Positions 18,701-27,446 of a DNA stretch of 64,000 bases are shown here, one piece after another (the stretch's first letter is position 1; each line of letters begins with the position of its first letter). Under the pieces are notes generated by a model. It was not told the origin of the DNA, made no database searches, and saw nothing but the letters and a program-made list of their open reading frames with translations. Source of the stretch: an uncultured Monoglobus sp. (GTDB taxonomy: Bacteria; Bacillota; Clostridia; Monoglobales; Monoglobaceae); assembly GCA_947628795.1 (NCBI GenBank), contig CANRBF010000002.1:62001-126000 (forward strand), in the 5' to 3' direction. The position numbers and the translations under genes were made by a program.

Positions 18701-18804
18701 GACAGACGAGCAGCGCCTTTGACCGAAGTTGAGCCGTTAATGAGGCGTGTTTAATTTTAAAATGTTATATATTACTAATATAATGACATTTTCTCTTAAA
18801 ACTA

Positions 18805-18833
18805 TTTATTTATAAAAATTAATATGATAGAAT
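18805..18833 (+). promoter_or_regulatory. Candidate promoter of the dynamin/HerA operon
   Basis: An extended -10, TGATAGAAT (TAGAAT at 18828-18833), with a poor -35 TTTATT (18805-18810) at 17 bases. It lies about 75 bases before the first gene, which has the G-rich ribosome site GAGGGGGGGAG. The intergenic stretch 18701-18912 holds nothing else I can name. Confidence 0.4.
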
Positions 18834-18912
18834 AGTCAAGATAGATATCATGCGCGGACATATTGTGTCTGCTCTGTTGTGATATGATAAGCGTAGAGGG
18901 GGGGAGACAGCA

Positions 18913-20097
18913 ATGTTTGAAGAATTTGGCATTAAAGACAATAAAATTTTTAAGGTAGTCGTTGTTGCCACTATGAGCAGCGGAAAATCCACATTTATAA
19001 ATGCTCTGATTGGAAGGGAGGTGCTGCTCAGCAGAAATGAGGCTTGCAGCGCTCAGGTCATATCTATACTTGATAATGACATAAACAAAAATGAGAAAGT
19101 TTTTTTGAAATATAATAATAATAAAATTGAGGAGTATAACCGCATTGACAGAGACCTTATGGAGAAAATCAATCAAAGCAAAAATGTTGACAAAGTTTTG
19201 TTTGAAACAGAAATTGGTGGTATTAAAAACACAGACAGAGCAATGGTTATAGTGGATACTCCGGGAGTGAACAATTCGCAGGATTCATCACATAAGAAAA
19301 AAACCATGGACTTATTGAAGCAGATTGATTCCGGACTTATAATATATCTTATCAACGCTACTCAAATTGGAGTGGATGATGACCGAGATCTGCTTATGAA
19401 AATATCCGAGGAAATTCGTGAAAGCAAAGGAAGAAAAAGAATAATTTTTATTGTAAATAAGACGGATGAAATTGACGAGCAAAAGGAAAATCTGTCTGAA
19501 ACCATTGATCACATTCATAAATATCTGGTCGATGCGGGAATTGTTAATCCGCAGATTTATCCGGTATCATCTTTGGCTTGTAAGTTGTTTAGAATGGTTA
19601 TGAATGGTAATTCTCTGACCAGACACGAAAGTGCTGATTTTGAAAAATTTTATGATACATTCAAACCCGTAGGATATAACCTGAACCGTTATATAATTTC
19701 TGATGAGTACATTGATAGGGAAAACGTCATATGTGTCAGAGGCGTTGAATACAGTTACGCGGATTTATATATGGCAATAGAAAATACCGGTATACCATCC
19801 GTCGAGCATGCAATTGAAGATATAATCGCTGAAACCGGAAATGTATTCAATCCGCTGATAAATCCGCGCAAATTCTCCTATAAAATAGACGGCGATTCGC
19901 TGGAATTCGAAATTAGAAACGGCTTGATATTTAAATGTCCCGCCGGAAATCGCCCTATAAGCAGCGGAGTCAAAAGCGGAGAATCTGTTGCGAGATTTAA
20001 ACGCGCACAATGCACACACTGTGATTATGCCAACCGATGCGGAATAGAAATTAAACCTAAATCAGCAATAAAAATAATTAAGAAAGGCAGGATATAA
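18913..20097 (+). CDS. Dynamin-like GTPase with C-terminal four-Cys domain
   Basis: 394 residues. The GTPase domain begins almost at the N-terminus: P-loop ATMSSGKST with K25, G3 VDTPGVNN with D115, G4 NKTD at 182-185. The spacing and the GREVLLSRNEACSAQV switch-I region resemble the dynamin-like second GTPase downstream, to which it is clearly related. Instead of a long helical stalk it ends in a Cys cluster, C342, C367, C370 and C376 (CPAG ... CTHCDYANRC), reminiscent of the zinc-binding tail of IS1182-type transposases. It is the first gene of a six-gene operon, one base before the next gene. Possible role: membrane-associated GTPase working with its larger partner. Confidence 0.75.
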   Translation: MFEEFGIKDNKIFKVVVVATMSSGKSTFINALIGREVLLSRNEACSAQVISILDNDINKNEKVFLKYNNNKIEEYNRIDRDLMEKINQSKNVDKVLFETEIGGIKNTDRAMVIVDTPGVNNSQDSSHKKKTMDLLKQIDSGLIIYLINATQIGVDDDRDLLMKISEEIRESKGRKRIIFIVNKTDEIDEQKENLSETIDHIHKYLVDAGIVNPQIYPVSSLACKLFRMVMNGNSLTRHESADFEKFYDTFKPVGYNLNRYIISDEYIDRENVICVRGVEYSYADLYMAIENTGIPSVEHAIEDIIAETGNVFNPLINPRKFSYKIDGDSLEFEIRNGLIFKCPAGNRPISSGVKSGESVARFKRAQCTHCDYANRCGIEIKPKSAIKIIKKGRI

Positions 20098-20098
20098 C

Positions 20099-22474
20099 AT
20101 GGGAGTAGCTGCAAATCCTAAAAACAGTAATAATTCGCATAGTGAGCAAACGGACATTGGAACGAAACGAGAATTTTATATTGAGTATAATCCGTATAAA
20201 AACGAAACAAAATTTTTGTTGGACGGTGATCAAGTCGGCGGCGTTTTTGAAACATACAAACGCAATTTCAGACTTCAGCAATATCTTGAAAAACGCGAGG
20301 GATGGAACGGATTATTTGCCGAAATATCAAAAAAATGTAATAGCGGCAGAATAAAGGTGATTTTCAAAGGCAGAGACATTGATTTCGCTGATTTAAAGCT
20401 TTGTCTTGAAGAAAGCATTTATGCCGATAAAACGGAACTTGAATTTATTCCCGCTAAAAAGGATTTTGACGATTTAATGTCCGGCATAGGAGTAATAATA
20501 GATGATATTAAGAACACTGAGATAGATGAGCTTAAAAACAATCGGAGGATTGAAGCTGCTTATCGCGAAGCTATCAATTCGCAGCTTAAAATAAGCGTTG
20601 TGGCGACAATGAGCAGCGGTAAATCAACTCTTATTAATTCTCTGATCGGCAAAGAACTGCTTCCCAGTAAAAACGAGGCGTGCACGGCGACAGTCGCAAG
20701 AATTCTTGATAATGATTATGCCGAGGAGTTTAATTGTGTTTGCAGAAACAAAGATGAAGAAATAATTGACGAGAAACAAAACGTCACCAAAGAAGACCTT
20801 GAGGCGTATAACAATCAGGGAGCGGCGATGGATAATGATGATCCGAATAAAATAATTTTTTTGGATCTGGACGGCCCGATTCCGGAAGTTAAGTCCGATA
20901 AAATCAGATTGTTGCTTATGGATACTCCGGGTCCGAATAATTCGCGCGACGAAAAGCATAAAGCGCTCACGGAGGATATGATAAAAGACAGAAAGAATTC
21001 AGTGATTCTCTATGTAATGAACGCCACACAGCTCAGAGTTGATGACGATTATAAGCTCCTTAATCTTGTTTCCACGGCAATGAAAAACGGCGGTAAGCAA
21101 ACAAGAGACCGATTTATGTTCATAATAAATAAATTTGACGCTCTTGATTTGGAAAAAGAGTCTTCCGAGGATACGATCAAAAAAACAAGGGATTATCTGA
21201 GCGGGTTCGGAATAGAACAGCCGAATATATTTCCGGTAAGTGCTTACGCGGCGCTGCTTTTAAGAAAGCAAAATGAAGGAATTGAGCTTTCGCGTAAGGA
21301 AGCTTCGGACTTCAGTAAGTATTTGTATGACTTTGGAGATAAGGAATATGTAGAATCCCATTTTGAAAAACTGGCCGATTTGTCTCCGTCTGTCAGAAAG
21401 AAACTTGAGTCAAGGCTTGAAACGGCGGATAAGTATGAAAGGGCGATTATACATACGGGAATACCCGCCATCGAGGAAACTATAAACGAGTATCTTGAAA
21501 AATATGCTTACCCGATAAAGGTAAACGATGCCGCAAGCGAACTCAGCAGCTTGATTCGCGAATTGGATATGCAGCGCCGATTCAACGAAAGCATAGTAAA
21601 CAGCAAAGAAAAAAGAGACCTGTTGGAACAGCAGATAAAAGACGCAAAGGAAAAACAAAAGTCGGCAGAAAAAAGCAAAGATGACTTTAATAAAAGAATC
21701 GACGCTTTCAATATTGATGATTTTGATCCAAATTTTGTGATAGGCGAAGCTACTGCTGAAATATCAAGAATCACCGATGAGTTTGTAGGTAAGGGTGAGG
21801 TAGATCATTCAAAAGCCGAGTATTTGCTTAAGGGATTCCGAAAATCCATAGAAAGACTTTTGGATAAGTATGAATCAAGACTTAAATTTTTAATTGAGAA
21901 TGGATTAAAAGAAAAAGGCAATAAAATGAGCCGTGAATATAACGAAATTGTTATGAAAATGTTCAACGATATAGAAATAGAGGGGTTTGATTTTTCAAAT
22001 ATCAGAGAGTTGGACAGATATATAATACCCGATATGGATACTCTTATTTATAAGAATATCCGTTATGAGGATATTGAGGAAGAGTATGAAATCAGAAATC
22101 CGGAAAGATCGGGCTTTTGGGGCAGTTTAAAGTTTTGGAAACCTAAAAAAATTACAAAGACGCGCGTAATCGGACAAAGAGAAATTGTAGATACCGATAA
22201 CATTATTATCGGCGAGATAACTGATGTGGAAAATATGCTGATGAACGAAATCAACACAACATTTAAAAATGCTAAAGATGAAGTTCAAAAATATAAGAAT
22301 ATATTTAAGCGCAACCTTAACAAGCTCAGCGAGAAGATAAAACAAATCATACAGGATCAGGAGGACAAGCTCAAAAACGTTGAGGAACTTAAGTCGGAAA
22401 TAAAAAATAACGAGAAAAAGCTTGCTCAAATAGAAAAGCTTGCGGATAAAATAAATCATATTATGGAATTTTAA
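20099..22474 (+). CDS. Large dynamin-like GTPase
   Basis: 791 residues. An N-terminal domain of about 145 residues (unknown) precedes the GTPase: P-loop VVATMSSGKST with K175, switch-I region KNEACTATVARILDN, G3 MDTPGPNN with D275, G4 NKFD at 344-347. The C-terminal half is largely charged helix and coiled coil (about 480-560 and 730-790), with a central hydrophobic/aromatic patch SGFWGSLKFWKPKKI that could be a membrane paddle. The P-loop and G3 blocks match the shorter GTPase upstream, so they form a pair, as many bacterial dynamin-like proteins do. Likely role is membrane binding or remodelling; unproven. Confidence 0.8.
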   Translation: MGVAANPKNSNNSHSEQTDIGTKREFYIEYNPYKNETKFLLDGDQVGGVFETYKRNFRLQQYLEKREGWNGLFAEISKKCNSGRIKVIFKGRDIDFADLKLCLEESIYADKTELEFIPAKKDFDDLMSGIGVIIDDIKNTEIDELKNNRRIEAAYREAINSQLKISVVATMSSGKSTLINSLIGKELLPSKNEACTATVARILDNDYAEEFNCVCRNKDEEIIDEKQNVTKEDLEAYNNQGAAMDNDDPNKIIFLDLDGPIPEVKSDKIRLLLMDTPGPNNSRDEKHKALTEDMIKDRKNSVILYVMNATQLRVDDDYKLLNLVSTAMKNGGKQTRDRFMFIINKFDALDLEKESSEDTIKKTRDYLSGFGIEQPNIFPVSAYAALLLRKQNEGIELSRKEASDFSKYLYDFGDKEYVESHFEKLADLSPSVRKKLESRLETADKYERAIIHTGIPAIEETINEYLEKYAYPIKVNDAASELSSLIRELDMQRRFNESIVNSKEKRDLLEQQIKDAKEKQKSAEKSKDDFNKRIDAFNIDDFDPNFVIGEATAEISRITDEFVGKGEVDHSKAEYLLKGFRKSIERLLDKYESRLKFLIENGLKEKGNKMSREYNEIVMKMFNDIEIEGFDFSNIRELDRYIIPDMDTLIYKNIRYEDIEEEYEIRNPERSGFWGSLKFWKPKKITKTRVIGQREIVDTDNIIIGEITDVENMLMNEINTTFKNAKDEVQKYKNIFKRNLNKLSEKIKQIIQDQEDKLKNVEELKSEIKNNEKKLAQIEKLADKINHIMEF

Positions 22475-22486
22475 GGAGTGATAAAA

Positions 22487-23140
22487 ATGACAGCACAGGA
22501 AATTATAGATCGCATATCCGGTGATATGAAAAACAATAACATAACTGCGGCGAGGACCAGAACCGCAAATATATTAATGAGTAAAAGCTTCAGCAAGGAA
22601 GACATAAGCAAGTACGGAATGGTTATAGAGAAGCTTAGCGCGAATTATCCCAATATGTTTGAGAAATACAGCGGCTCTCCCGAGCTTATTGCTCAGTCAA
22701 AAACTCAATTTACGGCAAATGATTTTATAAATGCGGTCACCAACCTTAAAATAAACTTTTGCAAAGAACGCTTTAATGACGCGGTTCGTATAGGTGAAGC
22801 GGTCTATGGTAATACAGCGAATCAAAAAACTCAAACAGAGCATATCTCAAAACCAATGTCCGCGCCAAACACCGCAAACTACAGAGCGAACAGTGTGTCC
22901 GGTGGAAACGCGAAGGACACTGCGAAGGTGAAAACGGCATCCGGAGGAAACGCGAGTGACGCCGCGAACGTAAAAAAGGCAGCCGGTGAAAACGCGAACA
23001 GAACTAATTCAAATCAAAATAATTATACTCGGCCCGAATATAAAAAGAACGTTCAGTCATCGTCTTTTATTCCGTTAGCGGCCGGTGCTGCTGCGGCAAT
23101 CGGGGCTGTTATTTGGTTATTAAAAAGCATTTTTAAATAA
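22487..23140 (+). CDS. Small tail-anchored protein with a three-unit repeat
   Basis: 217 residues, unknown family. The N-terminal 110 residues look globular and helical. Then come three imperfect units of about 15 residues, SGGNAKDTAKVKTA, SGGNASDAANVKKA and AGENANRTNSN, in a polar linker, and finally a single TM helix (FIPLAAGAAAAIGAVIWLL) with a short basic end, so the protein is probably tail-anchored with the bulk in the cytosol. ATG 22487 is chosen over an in-frame GTG at 22478 because TAAGGAG directly precedes the GTG. Twelve bases after the large GTPase. Confidence 0.65.
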   Translation: MTAQEIIDRISGDMKNNNITAARTRTANILMSKSFSKEDISKYGMVIEKLSANYPNMFEKYSGSPELIAQSKTQFTANDFINAVTNLKINFCKERFNDAVRIGEAVYGNTANQKTQTEHISKPMSAPNTANYRANSVSGGNAKDTAKVKTASGGNASDAANVKKAAGENANRTNSNQNNYTRPEYKKNVQSSSFIPLAAGAAAAIGAVIWLLKSIFK

Positions 23141-23173
23141 ATCAATGATACGAAAACTGAAGGAGGGGTGGTT

Positions 23174-26100
23174 TTGTCCAACAATAATTCTCTTGATATA
23201 AGAGACAGCGCGGCTCTTGAATCAGCGACCGAAAAAATGAATATGGTAATAACAAAAAACTATCTTGCTGAACTTTCGGATTACGATGTACTGCAAATTG
23301 ATGATGAAATATTGCAGAAAGACATTATCAAGAGTATGCGTTTGTATAAGCTTGATAAATTTGTTTATCAGAAGGATGAAAGCGTGATAGATAAACTCGG
23401 CACGGCGCTTAATGTTGCATTTACCAACGGTATGACTGTTATTACCATCATGGACAGCAACGGCGAAAAAACGGACTTTTACATTGGAGCTGTAAATAGA
23501 AGCGAAGAAGACGGAAGTGTGGCCGGTGAAACGCTTGAGGGTGCGTTTAACGGCAATTTCCCGGGCTCGTATTTAAGCAATATTGACGCGGAAAATATTG
23601 AAAGAATAATAAAAAACAGCATAACGGGTGATACGTCGGGAAAAGTTGTGTCCTCCGTCTCCGCAATACCGTCGCTCCGTAAGAAGAACAGGGACGAAAT
23701 TAAAGCATATACTCAGGGCGTTGAAAATATGATTGACGCCCTTTCGGGTAAAAAATATACAGCGATTATGATCGCTGATCCGATTCAACCCGATGAACTT
23801 GACAGAATTGAACTCGGCTATGAGATGCTTTACACACAACTTTCACCGTATGCGAAAAGCGCTTATTCCTATAACGAATCAAAGACAACAGGAACATCGC
23901 ATAGCGACACAACATCAATAACCAAAAGCATCAATCAGAGTGTGAGCTACAGCAACAGTACAAGCGTCAACAGCGGTTGGAGTACGTCGAAAAGTGACAC
24001 AAAGTCCACATCCGCTGACGCTTTAAAAGTTTTGGGAGCCGCCATAGGAATGATTCCGAATCCGATAACAAATATAGTTGGCGGTATAATATCAATTGCC
24101 GGTTCAATGGGTTTTTCAAAAAGTCACACCACTTCCGAGAGTGAATCCGGCGGAACAAGCGAACAGCATGGAACAACGGATACAAAAGGAACAAACCTGG
24201 GAAGTTCAAAGTCCGCAACGGACACAAATATGAATTCGGATCAGAGCGGTCGTTCACTTACGATTACTTCGATAAATAAAACGGTGCAGGATCTGCTCGG
24301 CAAAATTGACGAGCATTTGGCGCGTATCAAATCTTGCCGCGTTTATGGTGCTTTTAATTCCTCGACATATGTAATTTCTGATGATACCCAAACAAACGGC
24401 ATTGTTTCGGCAAATTATAAGGCTCTGATTCATGGCGAGTCATCGTCCATGCAGGCTTCATATGTAAATACTTGGGATGAGAGAGGTAAGCCGGCTGAAG
24501 TTAAAGAGCTTAAAAAATATCTCTCAAAATTTACTCATCCGATTTTTCTGAAGCCAAACAATACTGACTTATATCTAAGCGCGTGTTCGGTTGTCACCGG
24601 ACAGGAACTTGCGGTACAGACAGCGCTTCCAAAAAAATCAGTAAACGGGATCTCGGTAGTTGAAACCGCTCCGTTTGGCAGAAACATATACAGACTTTCC
24701 GACGCAGCTCATAAGCGTTCCGCAAATATGGGCAGAATTTATCACATGGGTAAAGTATCGGGTGACAGGGTGAAACTTGATTTGGACAGTCTTGCCTCTC
24801 ATACGTTTGTTACCGGCTCGACAGGTTCGGGCAAGTCCAATACAGTATATAAAATCCTGAATGAAGCGGTAGAACGCAGTGATGTAAAGTTTCTTGTTGT
24901 AGAGCCCGCAAAAGGCGAATATAAGGATGTCTTCGGAGGAAGAGAGGATGTTTGCGTCTACGGTACGAATCCCAATATTTCACGACTTTTGCGAATTAAT
25001 CCGTTTTCCTTTGCCAAGGGGATACATATTTTGGAGCATCTTGACAGGCTTATTGAGATTTTTAGCGTCTGCTGGCCTATGTACGCCGCAATGCCGGCCG
25101 TATTGAAAAAAGCGGTTGAGCGGGCCTACGAAGTCTGCGGATGGGACTTGATGACTTCCGAAAACAAAATAGACAACACATTATATCCGACTTTTAAAGA
25201 TGTTTTAAATGAGATATACAATGTTGTAAACGAATCTTCATATTCCTCTGACAGCAAAAGTGATTATATCGGCTCATTGGCAACAAGAGTTGAATCTCTG
25301 ACAAACGGATTTTATAAGATGATTTTTACAAATAACAGTGTTTCAGATGTGGAATTGTTTAACAAAAACGTTATAATTGATTTAAGTCGTATTGGCTCGC
25401 AGGAGACGAAGTCTTTTATTATGGGTCTTATGGTTATGAAGCTTCAGGAATATCATATGTCGTGTGGAACTGAAGGCAATAGCGAATTAAAGCACATAAC
25501 GGTATTGGAGGAAGCTCACAATTTGCTTAAAAGAACTTCTACGGAACAGTCCAGCGAAGGCTCCAATATTCTTGGAAAATCTGTTGAAATGATTGCCAAT
25601 GCGATAGCTGAAATGCGTACATATGGTGAGGGATTTATTATAGCGGATCAATCGCCCGGTCTTATGGATATGTCTGTTATACGAAACACAAACACAAAAA
25701 TCATTCTTAGATTACCCGATTACGGAGACAGAACCCTTGTCGGCAAAGCAATAGGCCTTAATGAGCAGCAGATCGTTGAACTGTCCAAACTTCCGAAAGG
25801 TGTTGCGGCCGTATATCAGAATGATTGGATTGAGGCTGTTTTATGTCAAGTAGATAAATGCGAGGAAAACAAACCATTTGAAAAGTGCGGCGAAGAAGAA
25901 CTTTATAAAGACGACAAAGATGTTGAAGCCGAGCTGCTTGACCTGATAATGACGAACGAAATATTTGACGGTGATCTTGCGGAATTAAGAAAAATCAGAG
26001 AGAGCGTAATGAACTCAAATATACCGGGAGTTGTAAAATATAATTTTTCCGCATATTTGAAAAATCACCGAAAGAACAGGAGAAAATATCTTCTAAATCT

Positions 26101-26356
26101 TCTCAGCGTGTTCTTTGCCGCGCGTCGCGCAATAGACATAGCGGAGGATTCATGCGAAGATATAGATTCATGGCGAAAATCGATTTTGTCTAATCTGGCG
26201 TATGATATAAGCGGCTACACAGAGCTTCAAAAAAATAAGCTAATCGGCCTTTTGCTTTATCCGCTGCGTGACAGCGAATACGATAAGATATTCATTTATA
26301 TATCTGATTTGTGCCGTGAAGCACCGATTGAGGATACAAAAGGAGTTGTGAAATAA
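23174..26356 (+). CDS. HerA/DUF87-type P-loop ATPase with Ser/Thr-rich insert
   Basis: 1060 residues. An N-terminal domain of about 235 residues is followed by a Ser/Thr-rich region (about 236-358) that encloses a hydrophobic Gly-rich segment (about 280-313). The HerA/FtsK-like motor has Walker A TGSTGSGKSNT (K554) and Walker B ITVLEEAHN (E779, E780), and a downstream IILRLPDYGDR block. A C-terminal helical extension of about 170 residues ends the protein. TTG 23174 sits 7 bases after AGGAGG. Members of this motor family pump DNA or protein and often accompany nucleases in defence loci or toxin systems. Substrate not known. Confidence 0.75.
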   Translation: MSNNNSLDIRDSAALESATEKMNMVITKNYLAELSDYDVLQIDDEILQKDIIKSMRLYKLDKFVYQKDESVIDKLGTALNVAFTNGMTVITIMDSNGEKTDFYIGAVNRSEEDGSVAGETLEGAFNGNFPGSYLSNIDAENIERIIKNSITGDTSGKVVSSVSAIPSLRKKNRDEIKAYTQGVENMIDALSGKKYTAIMIADPIQPDELDRIELGYEMLYTQLSPYAKSAYSYNESKTTGTSHSDTTSITKSINQSVSYSNSTSVNSGWSTSKSDTKSTSADALKVLGAAIGMIPNPITNIVGGIISIAGSMGFSKSHTTSESESGGTSEQHGTTDTKGTNLGSSKSATDTNMNSDQSGRSLTITSINKTVQDLLGKIDEHLARIKSCRVYGAFNSSTYVISDDTQTNGIVSANYKALIHGESSSMQASYVNTWDERGKPAEVKELKKYLSKFTHPIFLKPNNTDLYLSACSVVTGQELAVQTALPKKSVNGISVVETAPFGRNIYRLSDAAHKRSANMGRIYHMGKVSGDRVKLDLDSLASHTFVTGSTGSGKSNTVYKILNEAVERSDVKFLVVEPAKGEYKDVFGGREDVCVYGTNPNISRLLRINPFSFAKGIHILEHLDRLIEIFSVCWPMYAAMPAVLKKAVERAYEVCGWDLMTSENKIDNTLYPTFKDVLNEIYNVVNESSYSSDSKSDYIGSLATRVESLTNGFYKMIFTNNSVSDVELFNKNVIIDLSRIGSQETKSFIMGLMVMKLQEYHMSCGTEGNSELKHITVLEEAHNLLKRTSTEQSSEGSNILGKSVEMIANAIAEMRTYGEGFIIADQSPGLMDMSVIRNTNTKIILRLPDYGDRTLVGKAIGLNEQQIVELSKLPKGVAAVYQNDWIEAVLCQVDKCEENKPFEKCGEEELYKDDKDVEAELLDLIMTNEIFDGDLAELRKIRESVMNSNIPGVVKYNFSAYLKNHRKNRRKYLLNLLSVFFAARRAIDIAEDSCEDIDSWRKSILSNLAYDISGYTELQKNKLIGLLLYPLRDSEYDKIFIYISDLCREAPIEDTKGVVK

Positions 26357-26358
26357 AC

Positions 26359-26802
26359 TTGGAAAAACTACATGATGTGAATGAGGTTAAAAGCACTCAT
26401 AAAAATAGAATAGAAAAAATAAACAAGACACTTCCCGAAACGAAAACAACTCACCAGGAAGCTGAAAAGTCTTTAAATAACAGAATCCCCGAAACATATA
26501 AACGTCCGACGAATTTTAGAAAAGGGCTTCGCGATGAGGTTTGGGATAACGCAAAAGACAAACACGGCAGAGTCAGAGATCCTGTTAGCGGAAGATATAT
26601 GTCAAAAAATAAACAGTGGGATATGGGACATAAGCCGGGATATGAGTTTAAAAAGCATCAGGAGAGCGCCGCGCGCAGAGGAATAAGCAGAACTGAGTTT
26701 TTAAACGAGTATAATGATCCTAATAAATTCAGACCCGAATTGCCAAGTTCGAACAGAAGCCATAAAGGTGAAGACAAAACAAATTTATATTTTGGAGATT
26801 AA
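26359..26802 (+). CDS. GH-E family (HNH/Endo VII-like) nuclease, toxin-type
   Basis: 147 residues. The C-terminal two-thirds matches the GH-E nuclease toxins of the HNH/Endo VII superfamily: DPVSGRYM, then WDMGHKPGYEF with G90, H91 and E96, GISRTEFLNEYNDPNKFRPE, and NRSHKGE at 132-138. The first 55 residues are charged and helical with no signal peptide, WXG or LXG region. TTG start two bases after the ATPase stop. It is normally the C-terminal effector of polymorphic toxins; here it stands alone beside its immunity gene. Predicted to cut DNA or RNA. Confidence 0.75.
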   Translation: MEKLHDVNEVKSTHKNRIEKINKTLPETKTTHQEAEKSLNNRIPETYKRPTNFRKGLRDEVWDNAKDKHGRVRDPVSGRYMSKNKQWDMGHKPGYEFKKHQESAARRGISRTEFLNEYNDPNKFRPELPSSNRSHKGEDKTNLYFGD

Positions 26803-26817
26803 AAGAGGTGTTTTAAC

Positions 26818-27378
26818 ATGAATAAGAAAAGTATTGCGAACTATGCGTTGAGTTTTATAGGCGGCAAGCCTAAGGTTTTTGAGTATCATAACGGGGACAA
26901 ATCAAAATCAATTGACATAATGACATCTATAAACAGCCGTTACTCGGACAGTATTGTTGTGTCTACAATAGGCTTGTGTGATACAGATATAAGCCTGAAT
27001 ATTGATGATAAGCCATTGAGAGTGGAACTCATATCAATAGCTGACAGCGATTTTGAGAATCTTGAAAATGCTGTTGCGGAAGCGGCATTTTACATAATGG
27101 ATGAAAAATCTGCCTATCCCGGATTTATAATTGAAAATGTTTACAAAAATTATATTGAAGACGCAACGACAAAACATGCGGTTTTGTTGACTCCCCCATA
27201 TTGGGATGATTATAAATCAATGGATTGCGGTGACTGCGTTGTTGCGTGGCTGTATCTGCTTCCCGTAACGGATAATGAGGTCGAATATATTATTAATAAC
27301 GGTATTATTGAATTTGAAAATTTGATGGACCAAAAGGGTATAGACACATTGGATTTTGGAAGAGATTCTGCCGTATAG
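26818..27378 (+). CDS. SUFU-domain immunity protein
   Basis: 186 residues resembling the suppressor-of-fused (SUFU) domain used as immunity protein in polymorphic toxin loci: HAVLLTPPYWDDY, VVAWLYLLPVTDNEVEYI and NNGIIEFENL are typical blocks. It has no signal peptide or TM segment, so it is cytosolic. ATG 26818 with a GAGGTG ribosome site, 15 bases after the nuclease gene, in the order toxin then immunity. It presumably binds and blocks the GH-E nuclease. Last gene of the operon. Confidence 0.75.
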   Translation: MNKKSIANYALSFIGGKPKVFEYHNGDKSKSIDIMTSINSRYSDSIVVSTIGLCDTDISLNIDDKPLRVELISIADSDFENLENAVAEAAFYIMDEKSAYPGFIIENVYKNYIEDATTKHAVLLTPPYWDDYKSMDCGDCVVAWLYLLPVTDNEVEYIINNGIIEFENLMDQKGIDTLDFGRDSAV

Positions 27379-27446
27379 TTTAAGTTACAGCGAACATTTT
27401 GGAATACGGCGCAGAGATAGTGATTTTATTGGAATAATTACGGTTA

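What the first reader, a model, noticed from the sequence alone, without database searches (positions are those of the whole stretch)
19921..20060. Transposase-like zinc tail on a dynamin-like GTPase
The short GTPase ends with four cysteines, C342 in KCPAGNRPISSG and C367/C370/C376 in CTHCDYANRC, spaced by a FKRAQ block. From memory, IS1182-type transposases end with the same design (CPNG.P......F....C..CP...C). A GTPase with this tail instead of a helical stalk would be an odd fusion and may mean nucleic-acid binding.
Basis: partly seen in the sequence, partly recalled or inferred. Interest (0 to 1): 0.6.

Follow-up and report, generated by a model that had tools for sequence, protein, structure and literature searches.

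The report
Transposase zinc module grafted onto GTPase
A small bacterial dynamin-like GTPase, part of a toxin-carrying gene island, has gained the four-cysteine, probably zinc-binding piece of a jumping-gene enzyme as its tail; evolution seems to have kept it, so it probably does something, though what is not known.

Summary
Observation confirmed. The ORF at 18913-20097 (394 aa) ends in a basic tail with C342, C367, C370 and C376. The tail resembles IS1182-type (DDE_Tnp_1_6) transposases well beyond Cys spacing. A search with the tail hits full-length transposases elsewhere (best E = 2.6e-9), and a transposase searched back against the whole genome hits only this tail (5.7e-8). hhalign probability is 95.7%, and 0 of 1000 Cys-preserving shuffles come near the real score. 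The borrowed piece lies between the second D and the E of the DDE triad, so it carries no catalytic residue.

Five related short GTPases from the same operon type (E. coli, Treponema and Lactococcus plasmids, two other genomes) all stop 10-15 residues after the conserved TG(I/L) motif. Only this gene and one Monoglobus ortholog carry 100 residues there. The tail is under purifying selection between the two (dN/dS 0.14).

The operon (two dynamins, small protein, Ser-rich HerA ATPase, HNH-type nuclease toxin, immunity protein) is an island absent from a congener. Most likely a bacterial host-transposase fusion: a Zn-stabilised basic binding tab on the small GTPase. Ligand unknown; structure prediction failed.

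The parts
18913..20097 (+). short dynamin-like GTPase gene, 394 aa, with the transposase-derived tail
   Evidence: ORF; Dynamin_N 61.3 bits; ortholog in L002 with 96% aa identity
18913..19857 (+). GTPase body, residues 1-315 (P-loop ATMSSGKST, DTPG, NKTD; conserved TGI...E end motif at 292-298)
   Evidence: alignment with short and long dynamin-like proteins of other operons; dN/dS 0.096 against G002
19861..20094 (+). added tail, residues 317-394, net charge +10, absent from the five untailed relatives
   Evidence: dN/dS 0.135 (residues 316-394), Fisher p = 4e-5 for fewer nonsynonymous than synonymous changes per site
19900..20070 (+). IS1182/DDE_Tnp_1_6-derived four-Cys module, residues 330-386 (C342, C367, C370, C376; also P343, G345, P348, A360, F362, K383, invariant across the aligned transposases)
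20099..22474 (+). long dynamin-like protein (791 aa) with GTPase domain plus helical/coiled-coil part
   Evidence: Dynamin_N 61.2 bits; alignment
22478..23140 (+). small protein (220 aa) with a C-terminal hydrophobic segment; in the same place as the 155-aa TM-like protein in G712
   Evidence: ORFs; no Pfam family
23168..26356 (+). Ser-rich HerA/FtsK-type ATPase (1062 aa)
   Evidence: DUF87/HerA 2.2e-17; CedD 5e-23 and ser_rich_anae_1 1e-24, both below the curated cut-off
26359..26802 (+). GH-E nuclease of the HNH/ENDO VII superfamily (147 aa, TTG start), predicted toxin
   Evidence: PF14410 3e-23
26818..27378 (+). SUFU-domain protein, predicted immunity protein
   Evidence: PF05076 8.5e-15
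18705..27446 (.). extent of the island: in congener G004 the adenine deaminase gene and proB are adjacent, with about 96 bases between the matching flanks
   Evidence: blastn of the window against L093 and the empty site

Best explanation
A bacterial host-transposase fusion. The small, stalk-less GTPase of a mobile two-dynamin / HerA-ATPase / HNH-nuclease island gained, in the lineage of two Monoglobus species, the four-Cys insertion module of an IS1182-type transposase as a C-terminal extension. Shown: homology of the module, its position outside the catalytic triad, absence of the tail in five relatives of the same operon type, purifying selection on the tail, and absence of the operon at the same site in a congener. 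Inferred: the four Cys bind one Zn; the module folds as a small Zn-stabilised basic tab and is a binding surface that docks the GTPase onto a partner (nucleic acid handled by the island, or the HerA ATPase, nuclease or long dynamin), so that GTP-driven pairing of the short and long dynamins is coupled to that partner. It has no transposase activity.
For: Reciprocal hits with full-length transposases. Pfam/NCBIfam labels for the tail and for the donor-like transposase L006. hhalign 95.7%, E = 8.6e-9 over 48 columns; BLASTP 43% over 58 aa. Ten positions invariant between the two tails and nine transposases. In L006 the module (C418, C443, C446, C452) lies between D368 and E494, and D175, D368 and E494 are all outside it. 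100 residues after the TG(I/L) motif here versus 10-15 in five relatives. dN/dS 0.135 for the tail versus 0.096 for the body. Tail +10, body -12. The stop is followed after one base by the ATG of the next gene, so the tail is integrated in a tight operon. Empty site in G004.
Against: Only two carriers are known, so selection rests on 19 substitutions in the tail. No confident structure: tail pLDDT about 25-50. No solved structure of the module. Zn and ligand binding are untested. The donor element is not in this genome, and the IS1182 fragment of congener G003 gives no significant match to the tail.
Confidence: 0.78

Rival explanations
1. A decaying IS1182 remnant: an element landed at the 3' end of the GTPase gene, most of it was lost, and the readthrough tail is tolerated junk.
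For: The sequence is a transposase fragment truncated before the catalytic E; fragments of IS1182 elements occur in related genomes.
Against: All four Cys and the other invariant module residues are kept in both carriers; nonsynonymous change per site is about 7-fold below synonymous (p = 4e-5); no other remnant of the element is detectable in the genome.
Confidence: 0.13
2. Convergent or generic four-Cys knuckle that only looks like a transposase.
For: Short region; the curated Pfam cut-off is not reached (18.6 against 25.1 bits).
Against: 0 of 1000 Cys-preserving shuffles within 35 bits of the real score; the reverse search of the whole genome with a transposase gives this tail alone; non-Cys positions P, G, P, A, F and K are shared.
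Confidence: 0.03
3. The fusion is real and functional, but the tail is a zinc module for protein docking only, with no nucleic-acid role (a sub-case of the best explanation, not exclusive with it).
For: The likely partner proteins are encoded in the same operon; the untailed homologs presumably work without a nucleic-acid contact in the short GTPase (inference).
Against: The tail is strongly basic, and in DDE transposases insertions between the second D and the E often contact DNA (established knowledge, not tested here).
Confidence: 0.4

Closest known systems
IS1182-family transposases (Pfam DDE_Tnp_1_6, PF13751)
   Same: Four-Cys module CPxGxxP...AxF-x4-CxxC-x5-C with its flanking segments; 38-43% identity to the L006 element over 58-69 aa
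   Different: No N-terminal domain, no DDE catalytic residues, no C-terminal helix with the catalytic E; fused to a GTPase
Bacterial dynamin-like proteins (Dynamin_N family; compare LeoA, DynA, CrfC)
   Same: GTPase motifs and tandem gene arrangement with a longer dynamin-like partner
   Different: No helical stalk, paddle or GED in the short protein; carries a Cys module; only weak similarity to LeoA (28 bits)
Host-transposase fusion genes (best known in eukaryotes; own knowledge)
   Same: A host-type domain joined in frame to a transposase-derived segment and kept by selection
   Different: Bacterial, and the captured part is the Cys insertion module alone rather than a whole transposase or its DNA-binding domain
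Two-dynamin / Ser-rich HerA / HNH-nuclease operons (E. coli pTW10590_133, Treponema pTS2, Lactococcus pB26B)
   Same: Same gene order, including a variable HNH/ENDO VII nuclease and a small immunity-like protein at the end
   Different: Their short GTPases have no tail; in Treponema, Lactococcus and G712 a WYL regulator lies upstream, none is seen here

Membership tests
IS1182 / DDE_Tnp_1_6 transposase | Four-Cys module with CPxG...CxxC...C and flanking conserved residues | tested here: met
IS1182 / DDE_Tnp_1_6 transposase | DDE catalytic triad (D175, D368, E494 in L006) | tested here: not met
   all three lie outside the captured segment
IS1182 / DDE_Tnp_1_6 transposase | Profile score above the curated Pfam cut-off | tested here: not met
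   18.6 bits against 25.1 for the tail alone
IS1182 / DDE_Tnp_1_6 transposase | Rest of the element in or near the gene | tested here: not met
   reverse search finds no other piece in the genome; terminal repeats were not searched
Dynamin superfamily | G1, G3, G4 motifs and Dynamin_N profile | tested here: met
   Dynamin_N 1.5e-16; motifs
Dynamin superfamily | Helical stalk / GED for assembly in the same chain | tested here: not met
   absent in this protein and in the other short members; the long partner has the extra helical region by alignment
Host-transposase fusion | Host domain joined in frame to a transposase-derived segment, present in more than one genome and under purifying selection | tested here: met
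Host-transposase fusion | Expressed protein with a function that needs the captured segment | not testable with these tools
   needs experiments
Polymorphic toxin system | Constant core genes with exchangeable toxin and adjacent immunity gene | tested here: met
   GH-E, LHH, WHH/colicin-DNase-type nucleases at the same place in different operons, with SUFU or SMI1-type neighbours
Polymorphic toxin system | Toxin with N-terminal trafficking domains | tested here: inconclusive
   the toxin here is a 147-aa protein with only the nuclease domain recognised; the delivery route is unknown

The most novel reading that the evidence does not exclude
The IS1182 module has become a nucleic-acid recognition tab that recruits a dynamin-type GTPase to DNA handled by the HerA ATPase and HNH nuclease of the island: a GTPase switch put under nucleic-acid control by a captured transposase part.
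Probability: 0.25. Interest if true: 0.7.

Novelty: new variant of a known kind. Interest (0 to 1): 0.47.

Why it matters
Capture of transposase parts by host genes is well documented in eukaryotes and much less so in bacteria; here the captured part is a minimal Cys module without any catalytic residue, with tailed and untailed relatives as a natural comparison. It also points to a thinly described, widely spread island type (two dynamins, Ser-rich HerA ATPase, exchangeable HNH nuclease and immunity gene) whose biology is open, and it offers a way to ask what the Cys module of IS1182 transposases, for which no solved relative was found, does on its own.

Tried and rejected
To deepen the alignment, transposases were sought in viral contigs; three searches found none and one query was not searchable. 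No PDB relative of the module. Stalk replacement was rejected after reading five untailed relatives. The short GTPase has no relative in the phages collection. G029 was looked at as a further relative, but its ORF is an odd chimera and was not used. The Calothrix plasmid hit is a long dynamin next to an HNH-like protein, not a tailed short one. Literature searches for the operon type and for IS1182 zinc modules gave nothing on point in the held library; most subscription papers and bioRxiv preprints are not held.

Full report
1. What is there. The ORF at 18913-20097 encodes a 394-aa protein with a Dynamin_N GTPase domain (61.3 bits). A second MAG (CANRHV010000006.1, uncultured Monoglobus; G002/L002) carries the same gene at 96% aa identity, with every one of these Cys and the stop codon in place.

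2. Is it transposase-like? Yes. The tail alone matches Pfam DDE_Tnp_1_6 (E = 0.0024, below the curated cut-off) and weakly the NCBIfam IS1182 model (0.055). Searching 391 genomes of the class with the tail gave, besides the two GTPases, matches in other genomes whose open frames are transposases or pieces of them wherever they were read. The best, L006, is a 536-aa protein over the Pfam cut-off for DDE_Tnp_1_6. In the reverse direction, L006 searched against the whole 2.35-Mb genome hits this tail and nothing else at E up to 1 (5.7e-8). hhalign of the two tails against four transposases: probability 95.7%, E = 8.6e-9. With Cys held in place and other residues shuffled, 1000 decoys reach at most 10.6 bits against 46.1 for the real tail; that HMM was built from transposases found with the tail, so the number is somewhat flattering, but the Pfam and NCBIfam models are free of that selection. 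Ten positions, six of them not Cys, are invariant across the two tails and nine transposases.

3. Which part of the transposase. In L006 the invariant acidic residues fit D175, D368 and E494 as the catalytic triad (assignment by conservation and motif), and the module (C418-C452) lies between D368 and E494. This is where DDE enzymes commonly carry insertion domains (established knowledge). The GTPase tail holds only this module and its flanks, so it cannot be a transposase.

4. How it differs from its relatives. Operons with the same order (short dynamin, long dynamin, small protein or proteins, Ser-rich HerA ATPase, HNH/ENDO VII nuclease, immunity-like protein) were found on plasmids of E. 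coli, Treponema saccharophilum and Lactococcus cremoris and in G712 and G143. Their five short GTPases end 10-15 residues after the conserved TG(I/L) motif, with no Cys there; the window protein and its ortholog have 100 residues. So the tail is an addition to a GTPase type that has no stalk, not a replacement of one. In the E. coli collection (5,426 genomes) the E. coli operon occurs once at megablast sensitivity.

5. Is it kept by selection? Between the two carriers, dN/dS is 0.135 for residues 316-394 and 0.096 for residues 1-315; in the tail there are 12 synonymous and 7 nonsynonymous changes on 50.5 and 186.5 sites, Fisher p = 4e-5. This is one pairwise comparison with few changes. Synonymous divergence is higher in the tail (0.29) than in the body (0.13), unexplained. 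The next gene starts one base after the stop.

6. The island. In congener G004 the adenine deaminase gene and proB are neighbours, with about 96 bases between the matching flanks; in the window 8.7 kb carrying the whole operon lie between them (18705-27446). The nuclease differs in subfamily between operons: GH-E here, LHH in E. coli, WHH/colicin-DNase in Treponema, Lactococcus and G712. A related single-dynamin version sits on an element with three serine recombinases in L076. This looks like an exchangeable-toxin module on mobile DNA; whether it is defence or interbacterial conflict is not shown.

7. Mechanism. Most likely the module forms a Zn-stabilised basic tab (17 K/R against 7 D/E) that docks the small GTPase on a partner. 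Nucleic acid and the island's own proteins are about equally likely partners. Zn binding, fold and partner are inference: both structure predictions were of low confidence and no solved structure resembles the module by sequence.

8. Verdict.

Noticed in passing
18705-27446 and L065, L066, L067, L068, L086: A recurring operon of two dynamin-like GTPases, a small protein, a Ser-rich HerA ATPase, an HNH/ENDO VII nuclease of varying subfamily and an immunity-like protein, on plasmids and chromosomes of distant bacteria; a WYL-domain regulator lies upstream in Treponema, Lactococcus and G712.
   Followed up: partly
L076:7554-14766: A single-dynamin version with Ser-rich HerA ATPase and a WHH/colicin-DNase-like nuclease on an IMG/VR contig that carries three serine recombinases, suggesting an integrative element rather than a virus.
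   Followed up: partly
L069:7264-9669 (G029): Long dynamin-like GTPase domain reads in frame into an HlyD/RND-adaptor-like protein; fusion, pseudogene or assembly chimera not distinguished.
   Followed up: no
20099-20175: The long dynamin has about 24 extra N-terminal residues (MGVAANPKNSNNSHSEQTDIGTKR) compared with its homologs; no transposase similarity was seen.
   Followed up: no
18913-20097 against L002:5512-6696: Synonymous divergence is about twice as high in the tail as in the GTPase body (0.29 against 0.13).
   Followed up: no
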